Program-made: the position numbers and the translations under genes | Source: Sulfitobacter sp. HI0040 | GTDB taxonomy: Bacteria > Pseudomonadota > Alphaproteobacteria > Rhodobacterales > Rhodobacteraceae | Reading direction: 5' to 3' | DNA: 37,971 nucleotides | NCBI RefSeq assembly: GCF_001634885.1 | Contig: NZ_LWEX01000379.1 | Location: 1-37,971, forward strand | Notes under the pieces: generated by a model | Databases searched by the model: none | The model's input: only the letters and a program-made list of their open reading frames with translations | Told to the model about the DNA's origin: nothing | Shown: positions 27,856 through 31,584 of the stretch, in pieces | Numbering within the stretch: the stretch's first letter is position 1 | How the letters are laid out: each line of letters begins with the position of its first letter

Positions 27856-28683
27856 TCAGCGGTAGCGGTTGTATCCGCCCTGCACGATGGACGGAATATC
27901 GAGCGTGATGATGTTGAACCCGCCCCCCTGCCCGGCAGAAACCGCGCCCTGCATCAGAGTGACCGCGATATTGTTGGCGGTCGCCGTCCCTTCGAGCGCG
28001 TCGTAAACGGCCGAGAACCGCTTCACCAAGCGATCCACCTCTGCCGGATCCTTCAGCTTTTCGATATCGAATTTCGCTTTGAACAGTTCGACCTGCCGGT
28101 CGATGTCCACCTGCACGACTTCTTTCGGCAGGCCGAGCGCGGTGCGCATGAATTTGGCGATGTCCTTGTCCTTCAGGACGTCGAACCATGTGTTGATCTC
28201 GCCGGCCTTGGCCTTGAATTCCAGCGCCAGCCCCGCGCCGGTGTTCTGCTCCGCCGCGGTGTTGAGCAATATGCGTTCCTTGAAACGCTCGATCATGTCC
28301 GCCTGCCATTGGGGGTCGCTGAAATTCGCGCTGCCCCCGCCGCCCGGCGCAAAGCCAAGCTCGATGTGCATCTCGCGGATGTTGGGATCGGTCAGGCGGT
28401 TCACCAGCGCGGCGGTATCCGAGCGGTCACTTTCCAGCGTCTTGCGGATGAGCGCCTTGCCGAAGATCTGCGCTTCGAGGTCGAAGGCCCGCATGACGAA
28501 AGTATAGACCTCCGTATCCGCGATCAGTTCCTTGGGCGATCCGATCTGGCCGATACGCTCGCTGAAGGCGGCGATCTGCCGCGCGTTCAGCGCGTTGCGC
28601 GCCACCAGGTCCAGCTGCTTATCGCGCGTACTGTCATAGAGATTGACAGCCAGACCTGTTCCCAGACCGCCCAGGGGGATCAT
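27856..28683 (-). CDS. DUF1217 flagellar protein
   Basis: This 275-residue protein is composed of helical segments with no transmembrane helix. It matches the DUF1217 family found in alphaproteobacterial flagellar clusters in its N-terminal (NALNARQIAAFSERIG) and central (RKTLESDRSDTAALVNRLTDPN) stretches. The biochemical role is not known; its location suggests a filament- or hook-assembly accessory. The ATG overlaps the flbT stop by 4 bases, so it is coupled to flbT, and it is last in the flagellin-flaF-flbT-DUF1217 unit. It is convergent with fliG after 12 bases, with no visible terminator. Confidence 0.8.
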   Translation of the reverse strand: MIPLGGLGTGLAVNLYDSTRDKQLDLVARNALNARQIAAFSERIGQIGSPKELIADTEVYTFVMRAFDLEAQIFGKALIRKTLESDRSDTAALVNRLTDPNIREMHIELGFAPGGGGSANFSDPQWQADMIERFKERILLNTAAEQNTGAGLALEFKAKAGEINTWFDVLKDKDIAKFMRTALGLPKEVVQVDIDRQVELFKAKFDIEKLKDPAEVDRLVKRFSAVYDALEGTATANNIAVTLMQGAVSAGQGGGFNIITLDIPSIVQGGYNRYR

Positions 28684-29129
28684 GCGGACACCGATTGCCC
28701 TGCCGCCGGCGGGGCGGCTTTTGCTGCGGCACCGCGGTCCGGCAGTTTCAGCGACATCAACTCGCCCTCGTACTTCAGCACGGGGCGCAGGTCGCTCATG
28801 GCCTTGTAGTAATCCGCCATGCTGACGTGGTTGGCGGCCTGCATCACCTTCCCGCGCATCTCTGCGCCGAAACAGGTTGCCAGCCCCACCAGCCCGGACT
28901 GGATCTTGGGTACGATCTCCTCCCGTGCCTTGGGATTGATGAGCGCCGTCTGCAACAGGAAATAGATCTTGGATACCGGCGTCGCCTTCTTCTTGGCGTC
29001 CAGCAGATCGCTTTCGCGCACGATGTCGGCGCGATTTTCCACGGTGATGGATTGGCGCCGATCCCCGTTGCGCAGGACACAGCCGTTGACGATGACCCGT
29101 TCGCGGGGTCTGAGCGTGATTTTTAACAT
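28680..29129 (-). CDS. flbT: Flagellin mRNA regulator FlbT
   Basis: This 149-residue protein begins MLKITLRPRERVIVNGCVLRNG, the characteristic start of FlbT, with the family stretch FLLQTALINPKAREEIVPKI in the middle. FlbT binds flagellin mRNA leaders and represses translation or stabilises the message in Caulobacter and relatives; the C-terminus here is Ala/Pro-rich. The ATG follows the flaF stop by 1 base. It overlaps the DUF1217 start by 4 bases. Being next to two flagellin genes that share a leader element makes the mRNA-binding role plausible here, though it is inferred from the family. The longer upstream reading overlaps flaF and was rejected. Confidence 0.94.
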   Translation of the reverse strand: MLKITLRPRERVIVNGCVLRNGDRRQSITVENRADIVRESDLLDAKKKATPVSKIYFLLQTALINPKAREEIVPKIQSGLVGLATCFGAEMRGKVMQAANHVSMADYYKAMSDLRPVLKYEGELMSLKLPDRGAAAKAAPPAAGQSVSA

Positions 29130-29130
29130 G

Positions 29131-29541
29131 TCAGACCCCTTCGTGAGCCATTTCGGTCGCGCCACGGCCCGCAAGCCCGGCGACGATGTTGCTGTTGATT
29201 TCCACGAGACCGGCGAGGCCGCCCTCCCCCGCGATGACGGCGCTGCACTGGCGGTCGATCCACATGGCGATGGAAATGAGCGATGCCTTCAGGCTGTCGG
29301 GGATCGTGTTGCCCGGCTCCGCCAGGTCGCTGCGCAGGGCCGCCCAGATGCGCTGGTTCTCAACCAGCGTATCGCGCAAACCGCCCGCAAGGATCTGCTG
29401 CCGCTCGAACCGGGACTCGCTCTTGTCGAAATCCGCGACATAGGTCTGAAGCTCATGCGTCACGCGCGACAGGATGCGCCGCTCGATCTGACGCGGGGAT
29501 TCGCTTTCCCTGATGGTCTTCTTGTATGCTGCCAAGCCCAT
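29131..29541 (-). CDS. flaF: Flagellar biosynthesis regulator FlaF
   Basis: This 136-residue helical protein begins MGLAAYKKTIRESESPRQIE and contains ERQQILAGGLRDTLVENQRIW and the MWIDRQCSAVIAGE stretch, typical of FlaF. In Caulobacter FlaF opposes FlbT and is needed for flagellin synthesis or secretion. The ATG has AAGGAG 9 bases upstream. It lies 65 bases after the first flagellin gene, separated by a hairpin, and one base before flbT. It is probably read both with the flagellin gene and partly attenuated. The family is clear from the N-terminus and size. Confidence 0.93.
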   Translation of the reverse strand: MGLAAYKKTIRESESPRQIERRILSRVTHELQTYVADFDKSESRFERQQILAGGLRDTLVENQRIWAALRSDLAEPGNTIPDSLKASLISIAMWIDRQCSAVIAGEGGLAGLVEINSNIVAGLAGRGATEMAHEGV

Positions 29542-29606: not shown

Positions 29607-30443
29607 TTACTGGAAGAGGCTCAAGATATTCTGCGGCGCCTGATTGGCGATCGACAGCGACTGCGTGGCAAGCTGCTGCTGCACCTGAAGCGACTGCAGG
29701 CGGGCGGCCTCTTCTTCCATGTCCGCGTCGATCATCGACCCGACACCGGCATCCAGCTTGTCCGTCAGCTCGCTCAGAAAGTTCTGCTGCGTCTCGATGG
29801 AACGCTCGGCAATACCCAGATCCGTCGCCGCACCCGTCACCGTGGTCAGGTAGCTTTCGGCGTTGCGCAATGCGGTTTCCAGCGCTGTCGGTGTGGTGCT
29901 CTCATCGATCAGGATCGCCGCAAATTTGGCCTGTTCCGCTTCGAGGTCGGTGGTGGTGAAATCAATCGTAGTCGTGTTCAACATCGTTCCGCTGCGGCTG
30001 ACGCCGGAAACGACTTCCTTCGGGCCAGCGCCAGTTGCGGAAATCAGGTTTTCGCCGTTGAAGGAGGACTGCTCGATCGCTGTCTGCATCTGCGCGGCAA
30101 GGGCGGTCAGTTCCTTTTGAATGTCAGCCTGATTCACGCCTTCGGTCTGGGCAAAGGCCAGACGGTCAACGAATTCCTGCGCAAGATCGACGAGCGTTTC
30201 CGCACCCAGGCGGGCGGTCGACACGGAATTCTTCGCAAGGGTCAGACCCTCGTTGACGGCTTTGTTCATGCCGCTTTCGGAATTCATCGTCGTGGAAATG
30301 GAATAATAGGACGCGTTGTCCTTGGCGGAGGAGACCTTCAGACCGGTGGAAATGCGGTTCTGTGTCTCGCCGAGCTGCTCGTTGATGCCGCGCAATGTCG
30401 AAAGCGCGCCCATCGCCGATGTATTGGTGAGGATTGAGGACAT
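29607..30443 (-). CDS. fliC: Flagellin
   Basis: This 278-residue flagellin has the conserved N-terminal D0/D1 region (MSSILTNTSAMGALSTLRG, then QNRISTGLKVSSAKDNASYYSIS) and the C-terminal D1/D0 region (ETQQNFLSELTDKLDAGVGSMIDADMEEEA, split here for description, ending NILSLFQ). The central part (about 150-195) is short, as in many alphaproteobacteria, so there is no large D2/D3 domain. Its leader carries a 17-base element also present before the neighbouring flagellin gene, and the ribosome binding site is GGAG. The two flagellins are tandem paralogues; they may form one mixed filament or be used in different conditions. Confidence 0.97.
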   Translation of the reverse strand: MSSILTNTSAMGALSTLRGINEQLGETQNRISTGLKVSSAKDNASYYSISTTMNSESGMNKAVNEGLTLAKNSVSTARLGAETLVDLAQEFVDRLAFAQTEGVNQADIQKELTALAAQMQTAIEQSSFNGENLISATGAGPKEVVSGVSRSGTMLNTTTIDFTTTDLEAEQAKFAAILIDESTTPTALETALRNAESYLTTVTGAATDLGIAERSIETQQNFLSELTDKLDAGVGSMIDADMEEEAARLQSLQVQQQLATQSLSIANQAPQNILSLFQ

Positions 30444-30478
30444 GGTAGTTTCTCCATACTTTTCTAGTGGATTTCAAA

Positions 30479-30495
30479 GTCGTCGTTCTGACAAC
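30479..30495 (-). promoter_or_regulatory. Flagellin leader element, copy 1
   Basis: GTTGTCAGAACGACGAC on the leftward strand lies 36 bases before the start codon of the flagellin gene at 30443. Sixteen of its 17 bases are identical to the element before the second flagellin gene, at almost the same distance. It could be part of a promoter or of the leader bound by FlbT. Downstream of it the two leaders still share blocks up to the ribosome binding site. Confidence 0.6.
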
Positions 30496-30524
30496 CGCAA
30501 GGTCTTGTCCGTCCTGAGGGTAGA

Positions 30525-30560
30525 CTTCCGGCCCCGGATCAGATGATCAGGGGCCGGAAG
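30525..30560 (-). terminator. Strong hairpin downstream of the second flagellin gene
   Basis: An 11-base perfect inverted repeat CTTCCGGCCCC/GGGGCCGGAAG (30525-30535 and 30550-30560) encloses a smaller dyad GATCA/TGATC, so nearly the whole 36 bases can fold into one long hairpin. It lies after the stop of the flagellin gene starting at 31478 and before the leader of the next flagellin gene. No U tract follows on the leftward strand, so it may stabilise the abundant message as well as terminate it. Confidence 0.65.
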
Positions 30561-30587
30561 GTAATATTTATGATCTCAATTTAATCA

Positions 30588-31478
30588 TTAACGGAACAGG
30601 CTCAGGATGTTCTGCGGCGCCTGGTTAGCGATAGAAAGGGACTGGGTCGCGAGCTGCTGCTGAACCTGAAGCGACTGAAGGCGCGCGGCCTCCTGCTCCA
30701 TGTCGGCGTCAACCATCGATCCAACCCCGGCGTCCAGCTTGTCGGTCAGCTCACTCAAGAAGTCCTGTTGAGTTTCGATAGCCTTTTCAGCGATACCGAG
30801 CTGAGTTGCGGAATTAATGACAACTTTCAGGAAGTTGTCGGCATTCTTAAGGTCGTCTTCCATCGTTACCGTTTCGGTGGTAACGTCCACGCCGCCGAAG
30901 GCCAGCGCGACGGAAGCCAAGTCTAGTTCATTCATGTTGATGGAGGTGGTCGAAAGTGTACCGTCAGAGTTGCGGGTGATGCCCGAGGTCACTGTCACCG
31001 CGGTTTCGACCGAGGCCATATTGACGCTACCGTCGGTCGGCGCGGTGTAGGCGGCGGCAGCGACGGCGGGGCCGCCAATCAGGTTTTCGCCGTTGAACGA
31101 CGACTGCGCAATGGTCGTGTTCATCTGCTCGACAAGAGAATCGAGTTCCTTTTGCACTTGCGCCTTGTCGACGCCGTCGTTCTGCGAAAAGCTCAGACGA
31201 TCGACGAACTTCTGGGCCAGATCCTTCATCGTCTCGGCACCCAGACGTGCGGTGGAAACGGAGTTCTTTGCCAAAGTCAGCCCCTCCCGCACAGATTTAT
31301 TCATGCCGCTTTCAGAATTCATCGTGGTCGAGATCGAGAAGTAGGACGCGTTGTCCTTGGCCGAATTGACCTTCATGCCTGTGGAGATGCGGTTCTGTGT
31401 CTCGGACAGGTTGCTGTTTACGCTCCGCAGTGTGGAGAGAGCATTCATTGCGGAGCTGTTTGTGAGGATAGAAGACAT
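30588..31478 (-). CDS. Flagellin (second paralogue)
   Basis: This 296-residue flagellin is a close paralogue of the one encoded next to it. Its termini are almost the same (SSILTNSSAMNALSTLRSVN at the start, QNILSLFR at the end) and the difference is in the centre (about 135-215), where this protein is 18 residues longer and of different sequence. It has the same leader element and the same D0/D1 architecture. The ATG at 31478 is preceded by GGAAC, a weak ribosome binding site. It precedes a strong hairpin that separates it from the other flagellin. Which is the major filament protein cannot be told from sequence. Confidence 0.97.
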   Translation of the reverse strand: MSSILTNSSAMNALSTLRSVNSNLSETQNRISTGMKVNSAKDNASYFSISTTMNSESGMNKSVREGLTLAKNSVSTARLGAETMKDLAQKFVDRLSFSQNDGVDKAQVQKELDSLVEQMNTTIAQSSFNGENLIGGPAVAAAAYTAPTDGSVNMASVETAVTVTSGITRNSDGTLSTTSINMNELDLASVALAFGGVDVTTETVTMEDDLKNADNFLKVVINSATQLGIAEKAIETQQDFLSELTDKLDAGVGSMVDADMEQEAARLQSLQVQQQLATQSLSIANQAPQNILSLFR

Positions 31479-31510
31479 GTGTAGTTCCAGTACTATTCTT
31501 AGTAATCCAT

Positions 31511-31527
31511 GTCGTCATTCTGACAAC
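31511..31527 (-). promoter_or_regulatory. Flagellin leader element, copy 2
   Basis: GTTGTCAGAATGACGAC on the leftward strand lies 33 bases before the start codon of the second flagellin gene, with one base different from copy 1. Just upstream lies GCGGATAATTCCGC, which contains GCGGATAA, close to the sigma-28 -10 sequence GCCGATAA, and is itself a dyad. A small hairpin TACTA-AGAA-TAGTA follows between the element and the start codon. Confidence 0.6.
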
Positions 31528-31584
31528 TGCGGAATTATCCGCTTGGTTTGTGGTTTGATGCATGATTCTGTCAGGAATATGGCA

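What the first reader, a model, noticed from the sequence alone, without database searches (positions are those of the whole stretch)
30479..31527. Conserved 17-base element in both flagellin leaders
GTTGTCAGAAYGACGAC occurs 33-36 bases before both flagellin start codons (16/17 identical), followed by further shared blocks up to the start codon, while the surrounding intergenic DNA differs. flbT and flaF, which control flagellin mRNA in Caulobacter, sit next door. It is a candidate FlbT target or promoter core.
Basis: partly seen in the sequence, partly recalled or inferred. Interest (0 to 1): 0.7.

Follow-up and report, generated by a model that had tools for sequence, protein, structure and literature searches.

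The report
Conserved RNA hairpin before flagellin genes
The repeated 17-base element is a small RNA hairpin with a nearly fixed loop that stands in front of most flagellin genes sampled in this bacterial family and, in a sister form, in Caulobacter, and it is probably the handle by which the regulator FlbT controls how much flagellin is made.

Summary
In detail: GTTGTCAGAAYGACGAC precedes both flagellin genes and occurs nowhere else in the genome at two mismatches or fewer. Each copy folds as a 6-bp stem around loop AGAAY. It is no recent duplication. A C-AGAA(N)-G hairpin, mostly 38-94 nt before the start, stands in 86 of 104 native-type flagellin leaders sampled in the family (shuffles mean 1.0, max 3). 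Searched without regard to the loop, GTC-N4/5-GAC has loop AGAA in 63 of 70 sites. The stem covaries (0 of 500 shuffles). In 517 kb of flagellar loci, 51 of 54 GTCAGAA(N)GAC sites lie in sense flagellin leaders. Caulobacterales leaders carry the same hairpin as tandem C-AAAAN-G copies; reviews say FlbT binds flagellin 5' UTRs there. Elsewhere in the class, ARAA-loop hairpins mark flagellin leaders in 22 of 29 FlbT-bearing genomes against 5 of 32 lacking FlbT, though FlbT follows phylogeny. Eight gamma-type flagellin leaders have none. No Rfam family fits. Best reading: an FlbT-type post-transcriptional control hairpin, not a promoter core. Binding is untested.

The parts
31511..31527 (-). H1 hairpin of the leader of flagellin gene 1: GUUGUC-AGAAU-GACGAC
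   Evidence: exact match; folds as a 7-bp stem counting the inner A-U; best hit of covariance model R1 in this genome, 25.3 bits (this sequence was among the 64 used to build R1)
30479..30495 (-). H1 hairpin of the leader of flagellin gene 2: GUUGUC-AGAAC-GACGAC
   Evidence: exact match; folds; R1 hit 21.7 bits, below a 21.9-bit hit elsewhere in the genome (also in the training set)
31529..31542 (-). H0' hairpin GCGGA-UAAU-UCCGC directly upstream of H1 in leader 1; no clear counterpart in leader 2
   Evidence: fold, position; similar upstream stems in other short leaders seen by eye, not counted
31492..31503 (-). second, SD-proximal hairpin ACUA-AGAA-UAGU in leader 1
   Evidence: fold, position; AGAA-N2..10-GGR in 22 of 25 short leaders, shuffles mean 5.0, max 11
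30454..30469 (-). SD-proximal AGAA box CACUAGAAAAGUAUGG in leader 2
   Evidence: position; same count as above
30588..31478 (-). flagellin gene 1
   Evidence: Pfam Flagellin_N and Flagellin_C
29607..30443 (-). flagellin gene 2
   Evidence: Pfam Flagellin_N and Flagellin_C
29131..29541 (-). flaF
   Evidence: Pfam FlaF, E 1.6e-24
28680..29129 (-). flbT, proposed trans-acting partner
   Evidence: Pfam FlbT, E 3.2e-31; flagellin-flaF-flbT in the same order on plasmids of Loktanella salsilacus and Marinovum algicola

Best explanation
The element is an RNA hairpin (H1) in the 5' leader of both flagellin mRNAs: a short stem topped by an AGAA(N) loop closed by C-G. Together with a second AGAA box or hairpin beside the Shine-Dalgarno sequence it forms a binding platform for the post-transcriptional flagellin regulator FlbT (with FlaF and possibly a flagellin as co-factors), encoded directly downstream. 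FlbT would hold back translation or shorten mRNA life until the hook-basal body can export flagellin. Shown here: the hairpin, its conservation, its stem covariation, its concentration in native-type flagellin leaders, the equivalent ARAA-loop hairpins in Caulobacterales, and an association with FlbT. Inferred: that the hairpin lies within the transcript in this genome, that FlbT is what recognises it, and the direction of the effect.
For: Hairpin in 86 of 104 leaders (strict) against 1.0 on average and 3 at most in 50 shuffle rounds; 96 of 104 with one bulge allowed (2 of the 96, L140 and L038, are doubtful by position). Loop-blind search: 63 of 70 GTC-N4/5-GAC sites in the 104 leaders have loop AGAA. 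The fourth stem pair is paired in 53 of 76 non-redundant copies (shuffle mean 32, max 44 of 1000) with six pair types, and in 53 of 78 cores taken without regard to stem length (mean 36.5, max 48). Covariation score 0.292 against 0.164, 0 of 500 shuffles; all slid registers lower. 51 of 54 core sites in 517 kb lie in sense flagellin leaders. Among all 256 tetramers, AGAA or AAAA ranks first as hairpin loop in each of three sets: AGAA 61 of 104 against 1.1 expected, AGAA 14 of 79 against 1.05, AAAA 72 of 76 against 3.5. Caulobacterales leaders carry tandem hairpins (71 of 76 with two or more ARAA hairpins; 64 of 76 by the narrower C-ARAAN-G rule), including GUC-AAAAU-GAC, the same hairpin with one loop change. 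In the 44 leaders with a sigma-54-like site, 40 have the base before the loop-closing C 14-15 nt beyond TTGC, about where RNA should begin. FlbT link: class leaders 26 of 42 in FlbT-bearing against 5 of 37 in FlbT-lacking genomes; per genome 22 of 29 against 5 of 32, Fisher p 2e-6. 0 of 8 gamma-type flagellin leaders have it. G058, with FlbT not found and flg genes close by, has a flagellin leader without the hairpin. Four of four leaders on named plasmids have it. Reviews state that FlbT binds the flagellin 5' UTR in Caulobacter, mechanism unresolved (PMC4347634, PMC3930126; passages read).
Against: No binding, RNA end or expression data in this organism. FlbT presence follows phylogeny, so the Fisher value overstates independence. 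G056 has no FlbT found yet keeps a hairpin before its orphan flagellin. Even with a bulge allowed, 8 of 104 leaders lack the hairpin; one is from FlbT-less G058, the other seven from FlbT-bearing genomes: G355 C23 (beside its own flbT), G293 twice, G121, G150, G175, G087. One of six G086 leaders read also lacks it. 13 of 60 fetched flagellin loci show no FlbT within the stretch. 5 of 37 FlbT-lacking leaders have an ARAA hairpin (chance 2.1, max 6). The 0 of 8 for gamma-type flagellins is also what chance gives (0.4); it matters only against the 80-90% of native-type leaders. The single hairpin is too short to be specific in a whole genome: 6-27 R1 hits at E up to 3 in each of 28 genomes. Folding scores of the window leaders depend on the stretch: z from -3.6 to -0.6 for leader 1, -1.2 to -0.3 for leader 2. 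A flbT transposon mutant of Phaeobacter inhibens is still motile, which its authors find in accord with a repressor (PMC11974857, passage); FlbT is described as an activator in Brucella, so the sign of regulation is open.
Confidence: 0.68

Rival explanations
1. A different RNA-binding factor (Hfq, CsrA-like, FlaF, flagellin itself or an unknown protein) or a base-pairing small RNA reads the AGAA loop; FlbT only co-occurs.
For: All the conservation evidence fits any sequence-specific reader. flaF sits beside flbT in the window and was not tested separately.
Against: Five of the eight gamma-type flagellins without the hairpin are in genomes that also hold FlbT and a match to the native flagellin (G039, G051, G097, G161, G174), so a general factor would need another reason; of those five only G051's native leader was read, and it has the hairpin. 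The loop tolerates AGAA to AAAA, which does not suggest strict base pairing. No GGA in the loop, so not a classical CsrA site (recalled consensus).
Confidence: 0.2
2. Passive 5' hairpin that protects the flagellin mRNA from decay, with no dedicated protein.
For: The Caulobacterales hairpin would start at or within a few bases of the predicted +1.
Against: A passive hairpin needs no fixed loop, yet in a loop-blind search 63 of 70 GTC-N4/5-GAC sites have AGAA while the outer stem changes freely. The long-leader class places it behind another conserved hairpin.
Confidence: 0.07
3. DNA-level element: promoter core or operator (imperfect palindrome GTCGTC/GACGAC).
For: Inverted repeat; short, fixed distance to the start codon within each class; no promoter signal recognised upstream in the window itself.
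Against: Compensatory changes across six pair types and 4- or 5-nt loops. CtrA-type TTAA-N7-TTAA boxes 60-75 nt before the loop in 8 of 25 short leaders (a ninth at 30; other spacings N5, N6, N8, N9 give 0, 0, 1, 1) and sigma-54-like sites upstream in 44 of 76 Caulobacterales leaders put transcription starts upstream of or at the hairpin.
Confidence: 0.05

Closest known systems
FlbT-bound 5' UTR of Caulobacter flagellin mRNAs (Anderson and Gober 2000; primary paper not read, known from passages in PMC4347634 and PMC3930126)
   Same: Flagellin leader, FlbT and FlaF encoded in the genome, hairpin C-ARAAN-G; many Caulobacter leaders carry GUC-AAAAU-GAC where the window has GUC-AGAAY-GAC.
   Different: Caulobacter mostly has two tandem AAAA-loop hairpins, often behind a sigma-54-like site; the window has one AGAA hairpin plus an SD-proximal AGAA and no sigma-54-like or CtrA-type site seen. 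Binding is reported for Caulobacter and untested here.
flg-Rhizobiales RNA (Rfam RF01736)
   Same: Alphaproteobacterial RNA candidate next to a flagellar gene.
   Different: No match in the window or in 19 flagellin loci. The two weak class-level matches (40.9 and 29.6 bits, gathering score 55) overlap the start of FlgF-like reading frames (my reading of the translations) and show no clear H1-like hairpin.
CsrA-controlled flagellin leaders (Campylobacter flaA, Bacillus hag)
   Same: A small RNA-binding protein acting on flagellin mRNA (abstract in search listing, PMC4894983, for Campylobacter; Bacillus recalled).
   Different: CsrA binds GGA motifs; here the loop is ARAA.

Membership tests
FlbT-controlled flagellin leader (Caulobacter type) | Leader of a flagellin gene in a genome with flbT | tested here: met
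FlbT-controlled flagellin leader (Caulobacter type) | Shares the leader hairpin of Caulobacter flagellins | tested here: met
   GUC-ARAAN-GAC in both; loop AGAA here, AAAA there, and the tandem arrangement is not the same
FlbT-controlled flagellin leader (Caulobacter type) | FlbT binds the leader RNA | not testable with these tools
   needs gel shift or CLIP
FlbT-controlled flagellin leader (Caulobacter type) | flbT loss changes flagellin mRNA life or translation through the leader | not testable with these tools
   needs genetics
flg-Rhizobiales RNA (RF01736) | Covariance model score at or above gathering (55 bits) | tested here: not met
   no match in window nor at E up to 1 in 19 of the 20 loci L129-L148
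Any Rfam 15 family | Match to a curated model at its gathering score | tested here: not met
   window: none at gathering, one sub-threshold match, E 2.9, on the other strand; 19 loci: two sub-threshold matches, both in L129 and outside its leader
CsrA-binding hairpin | GGA in the hairpin loop (recalled consensus) | tested here: not met
   loop is AGAAY
Promoter core or operator | DNA sequence, not base pairing, is conserved | tested here: not met
   compensatory stem changes

The most novel reading that the evidence does not exclude
C-[ARAAN]-G hairpins are the recognition code of the FlbT family: an RNA-protein pair older than the split of Caulobacterales, Rhodobacterales and other FlbT-bearing alphaproteobacteria, used as single, tandem or SD-overlapping modules, and carried with the often plasmid-borne fla2 flagellar cassette as a matched cis element and trans factor, while gamma-type flagellins acquired separately lack both.
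Probability: 0.5. Interest if true: 0.75.

Novelty: new variant of a known kind. Interest (0 to 1): 0.62.

Why it matters
A 2015 review gives the mechanism of FlbT on flagellin mRNA as unresolved and leaves its recognised motif blank (PMC4347634, passage). A defined hairpin with a nearly fixed loop, present across many genera, with two loop versions and some natural losses, turns this into a simple binding and reporter experiment. It also gives a marker for predicting which flagellins are under this export-coupled checkpoint.

Tried and rejected
Rfam: no family fits; flg-Rhizobiales compared and rejected. FlbT as a CsrA homologue: suggested by eye from the N-terminal strands, not supported by profile comparison or Pfam scan. 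AlphaFold model of window FlbT has mean pLDDT 65 and no PDB match below E 0.5, so it says nothing about RNA binding; the only PDB sequence match has E 1.6. Covariance model R1 as a genome-wide finder: too short; the 28 genomes given were chosen by me. A sigma-28 -10 reading of GCGGATAA in leader 1 was considered, but the string is the 5' side of the H0' hairpin and I saw no such string by eye in the other short leaders. Loop-anchored logos upstream of H1 showed no strong shared core in either class.

Sampling: 104 leaders were read, from 60 loci with the best matches to the window flagellin and the window's own two, 20 more loci and 16 of the 19 loci L020-L038 (3 duplicates removed). Searches had hits in 162 of 198 and 295 of 394 genomes, so this is a part. 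Dropped before the alignments: L140 and L038 (position) and L128_662234 (near-duplicate); then near-identical copies (91 distinct to 76); then 12 with 4-nt loops for the covariance model (64). These 76 were found by searching for [CT]AGAA, so their common loop proves nothing; supplies the loop-blind count. Pairs 1-3 of the stem are enriched by selection and were not used as proof of covariation. At class level 80 loci were fetched of a longer list; one (L225) gave no ATG, leaving 79. Two gamma-like loci (L017, L019) with unlike flagellins and L018 were left out of the count of 8. Of 18 further flagellin loci (L333-L350), my start finder read 12: 10 have an H1-type hairpin (9 AGAA, L344 with AAAA); L334 and L343 do not (L343 is L104 again); the other 6 were not pursued.

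Full report
What is there. The pattern GTTGTCAGAAYGACGAC matches exactly at 30479-30495 and 31511-31527, minus strand, 35 and 32 nt before two flagellin start codons. No other place in the 4.18-Mb genome matches with two mismatches or fewer. The genes are flagellins, followed by flaF and flbT. The order FlgI, rod-binding or FlgJ-like protein, a small protein, flagellin(s), FlaF, FlbT stands also on plasmids of Loktanella salsilacus and Marinovum algicola DG 898; on the Sulfitobacter sp. SK025 plasmid the flagellin is not followed by flaF and flbT in the stretch read. All four leaders of these three records have the hairpin. Marinovum is the reference for the fla2-type flagellar cluster in PMC11974857 (abstract, section 6 and passages read), so I take the window as fla2-type.

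It is an RNA-type hairpin. Each copy folds as GUUGUC-AGAAY-GACGAC. Leader 1 from 31542 to 31479 folds into three tandem hairpins: H0' (31542-31529), H1, and an SD-proximal ACUA-AGAA-UAGU; energy -17.8 kcal/mol, z -3.6, 1 of 200 shuffles as good. Other stretches of leader 1 give z -2.9 and -0.6, and leader 2 gives -0.3 to -1.2, so energy alone is weak evidence; H1 appears in all these folds.

It is conserved far beyond a duplication. I read 104 leaders of MSSILTN-type flagellins from the same bacterial family; the genomes sampled are nearly all of different genera. 86 have a C-AGAA(N)-G hairpin with at least 3 bp within 140 nt of the start; 50 shuffle rounds gave 1.0 on average and 3 at most. 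Allowing one bulged base gives 96, two of which I distrust for their position. Two layouts exist: short leaders (25; loop 38-46 nt from the ATG, including the window) and long leaders (69, or 68 without a near-duplicate; 58-94 nt). Over 61 loci, 517,430 bases and both strands, the core GTCAGAA(N)GAC occurs 54 times: 51 in sense flagellin leaders (51 of 68 starts) and 3 elsewhere, one of them at window 8881 minus; the reversed control pattern occurs 8 times.

The loop is nearly fixed and the stem covaries. In a search blind to the loop, GTC-N4-GAC and GTC-N5-GAC occur 70 times in the 104 leaders, and 63 of these have loop AGAA. In 76 non-redundant copies the first three pairs are nearly fixed as C-G, U-A/G and G-C; the fourth pair is paired in 53 of 76 against 32 expected (max 44 of 1000 shuffles), with all six pair types. 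With 78 cores taken without regard to stem length it is 53 of 78 against 36.5 (max 48); pairs 5 and 6 do not exceed the shuffles' maximum. On the 64 five-base-loop copies the covariation score is 0.292 against 0.164 in shuffles (0 of 500 as high), and every slid register is lower. Shuffles do not keep relatedness; slides do.

A sister hairpin stands before Caulobacter flagellins. 76 leaders from Caulobacter, Brevundimonas, Phenylobacterium and Asticcacaulis records (one of 77 loci was dropped for lacking a start) show C-AAAAN-G hairpins, usually two in tandem, such as GAGC-AAAAU-GCUC and GUC-AAAAU-GAC. 71 of 76 have two or more ARAA hairpins; 64 of 76 by the narrower C-ARAAN-G rule. These genomes are close relatives, so the counts are not independent; their 58 distinct hairpins still covary at the fourth pair (38 paired, shuffles 23.4, max 33). 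AAAA and AGAA exchange at the same place between two Brevundimonas leaders (L307, L311), and one leader of the window's family (L344) has GUC-AAAAC-GAC. In 44 Caulobacterales leaders with a sigma-54-like TGGY-N7-TTGC, the base before the loop-closing C lies 14-15 nt beyond the TTGC in 40. With the usual spacing of about 12 nt to +1 (recalled), the RNA would begin at or within a few bases of the first hairpin. In 9 of 25 short leaders of the window's family a CtrA-type TTAA-N7-TTAA box lies upstream, 8 of them 60-75 nt before the loop. The window leaders have neither signal.

Loop choice is not an artefact of looking for it. Counting all 256 tetramers as loops of hairpins with at least 4 bp, AGAA is first in the window's family (61 of 104, expected 1.1) and first in the other alphaproteobacteria (14 of 79, expected 1.05), with AAAA third in both; AAAA is first in Caulobacterales (72 of 76, expected 3.5).

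Link to FlbT. In the class sample, 49 of 142 genomes have FlbT. ARAA hairpins occur in 26 of 42 leaders from FlbT-bearing genomes (shuffles 3.0, max 7) and in 5 of 37 from FlbT-lacking ones (shuffles 2.1, max 6); per genome 22 of 29 against 5 of 32. FlbT is confined to part of the class, so this is an association along the tree and not many independent events. Within the family, 145 of 198 genomes have FlbT. Eight gamma-type flagellins (MTxINTN) have no ARAA hairpin (chance 0.4), and three genomes with such flagellins and no match to the window flagellin at 1e-15, G045, G104 and G176, lack FlbT. G058 has a native-type flagellin with FlgB-, FlgC-, FlgF-, FlgG- and FlgH-like frames (my reading of the translations) within 10 kb, no FlbT found and no hairpin. 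Against: G056 has no FlbT found and no flagellar neighbours that I could see in 20 kb, yet its leader reads GGAC-AGAAC-GUCU. G083 and G027 have hairpins and no FlbT found, but the flagellin genes concerned run to contig ends, so absence is unreliable. Seven leaders from FlbT-bearing genomes lack the hairpin even by the relaxed rule, one of them (G355 C23) beside its own flbT; in G175 and in L140 an AAGAA loop stands instead. 13 of 60 fetched loci show no FlbT in the stretch.

Mechanism. Reviews say FlbT binds flagellin 5' UTRs in Caulobacter and represses or destabilises them until the hook-basal body is built, by an unknown mechanism (PMC3930126 and PMC4347634, passages). It acts with the flagellin FljJ as co-repressor, released by secretion with FlaF (PMC7591256, PMC9812332, passages). 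I propose that the ARAA hairpins are what FlbT reads. In the window, H1 plus the AGAA beside the Shine-Dalgarno sequence (AGAA-N2..10-GGR in 22 of 25 short leaders, shuffles 5.0, max 11) would let bound FlbT cover the ribosome site. In some other families the hairpin itself takes in the Shine-Dalgarno, as in UCC-AGAAU-GGA. Binding, the sign of the effect and the co-factors are inference.

Novelty. No Rfam 15 family matches at its gathering score in the window, and no Rfam match fell in a leader in the loci scanned. Ten searches of the open-access library listed no paper whose title or abstract start describes this hairpin; I read passages of seven of the listed papers. The two primary papers most likely to mention Caulobacter leader structure, Anderson and Gober 2000 and Ardissone 2020, were not readable here, so a description of the Caulobacter stem-loops may exist. 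I therefore file it as a new variant of a known kind.

Noticed in passing
Alignment A3; e.g. L096, L097, L124 upstream of flagellin: Long (fla1-type) leaders carry at least two more conserved hairpins: an upstream GCAYC...GRUGGCGCG stem with compensatory changes, and a hairpin often of the form GC-AAA(A)-GC before the Shine-Dalgarno (36 leaders). No Rfam match in these leaders among the 19 loci scanned. This may be a larger structured leader RNA.
   Followed up: partly
L105, L106, L111, L118, L121, L077, L089, L092, L074: CtrA-type TTAA-N7-TTAA box upstream of the hairpin in 9 of 25 short flagellin leaders, 8 of them 60-75 nt before the loop; absent from the window leaders.
   Followed up: partly
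window 8881 (-): One further GTCAGAACGAC core outside flagellin leaders, one of 3 such sites in 517 kb; probably chance.
   Followed up: no
G086 (L334-L342): A genome with ten Flagellin_N matches keeps the hairpin on 5 of the 6 leaders read; L334 has a different leader, and three loci were not read.
   Followed up: partly
L226, L237 (G520): Another family of the class has a strong upstream CGAC-AGAA-GUCG hairpin plus an SD-proximal CCAGAA, a layout like that of the window.
   Followed up: no
G055, same genus as the window's genome: A one-contig genome of the same genus has no flagellin match and no FlbT match, which would fit a mobile fla2 cluster.
   Followed up: no
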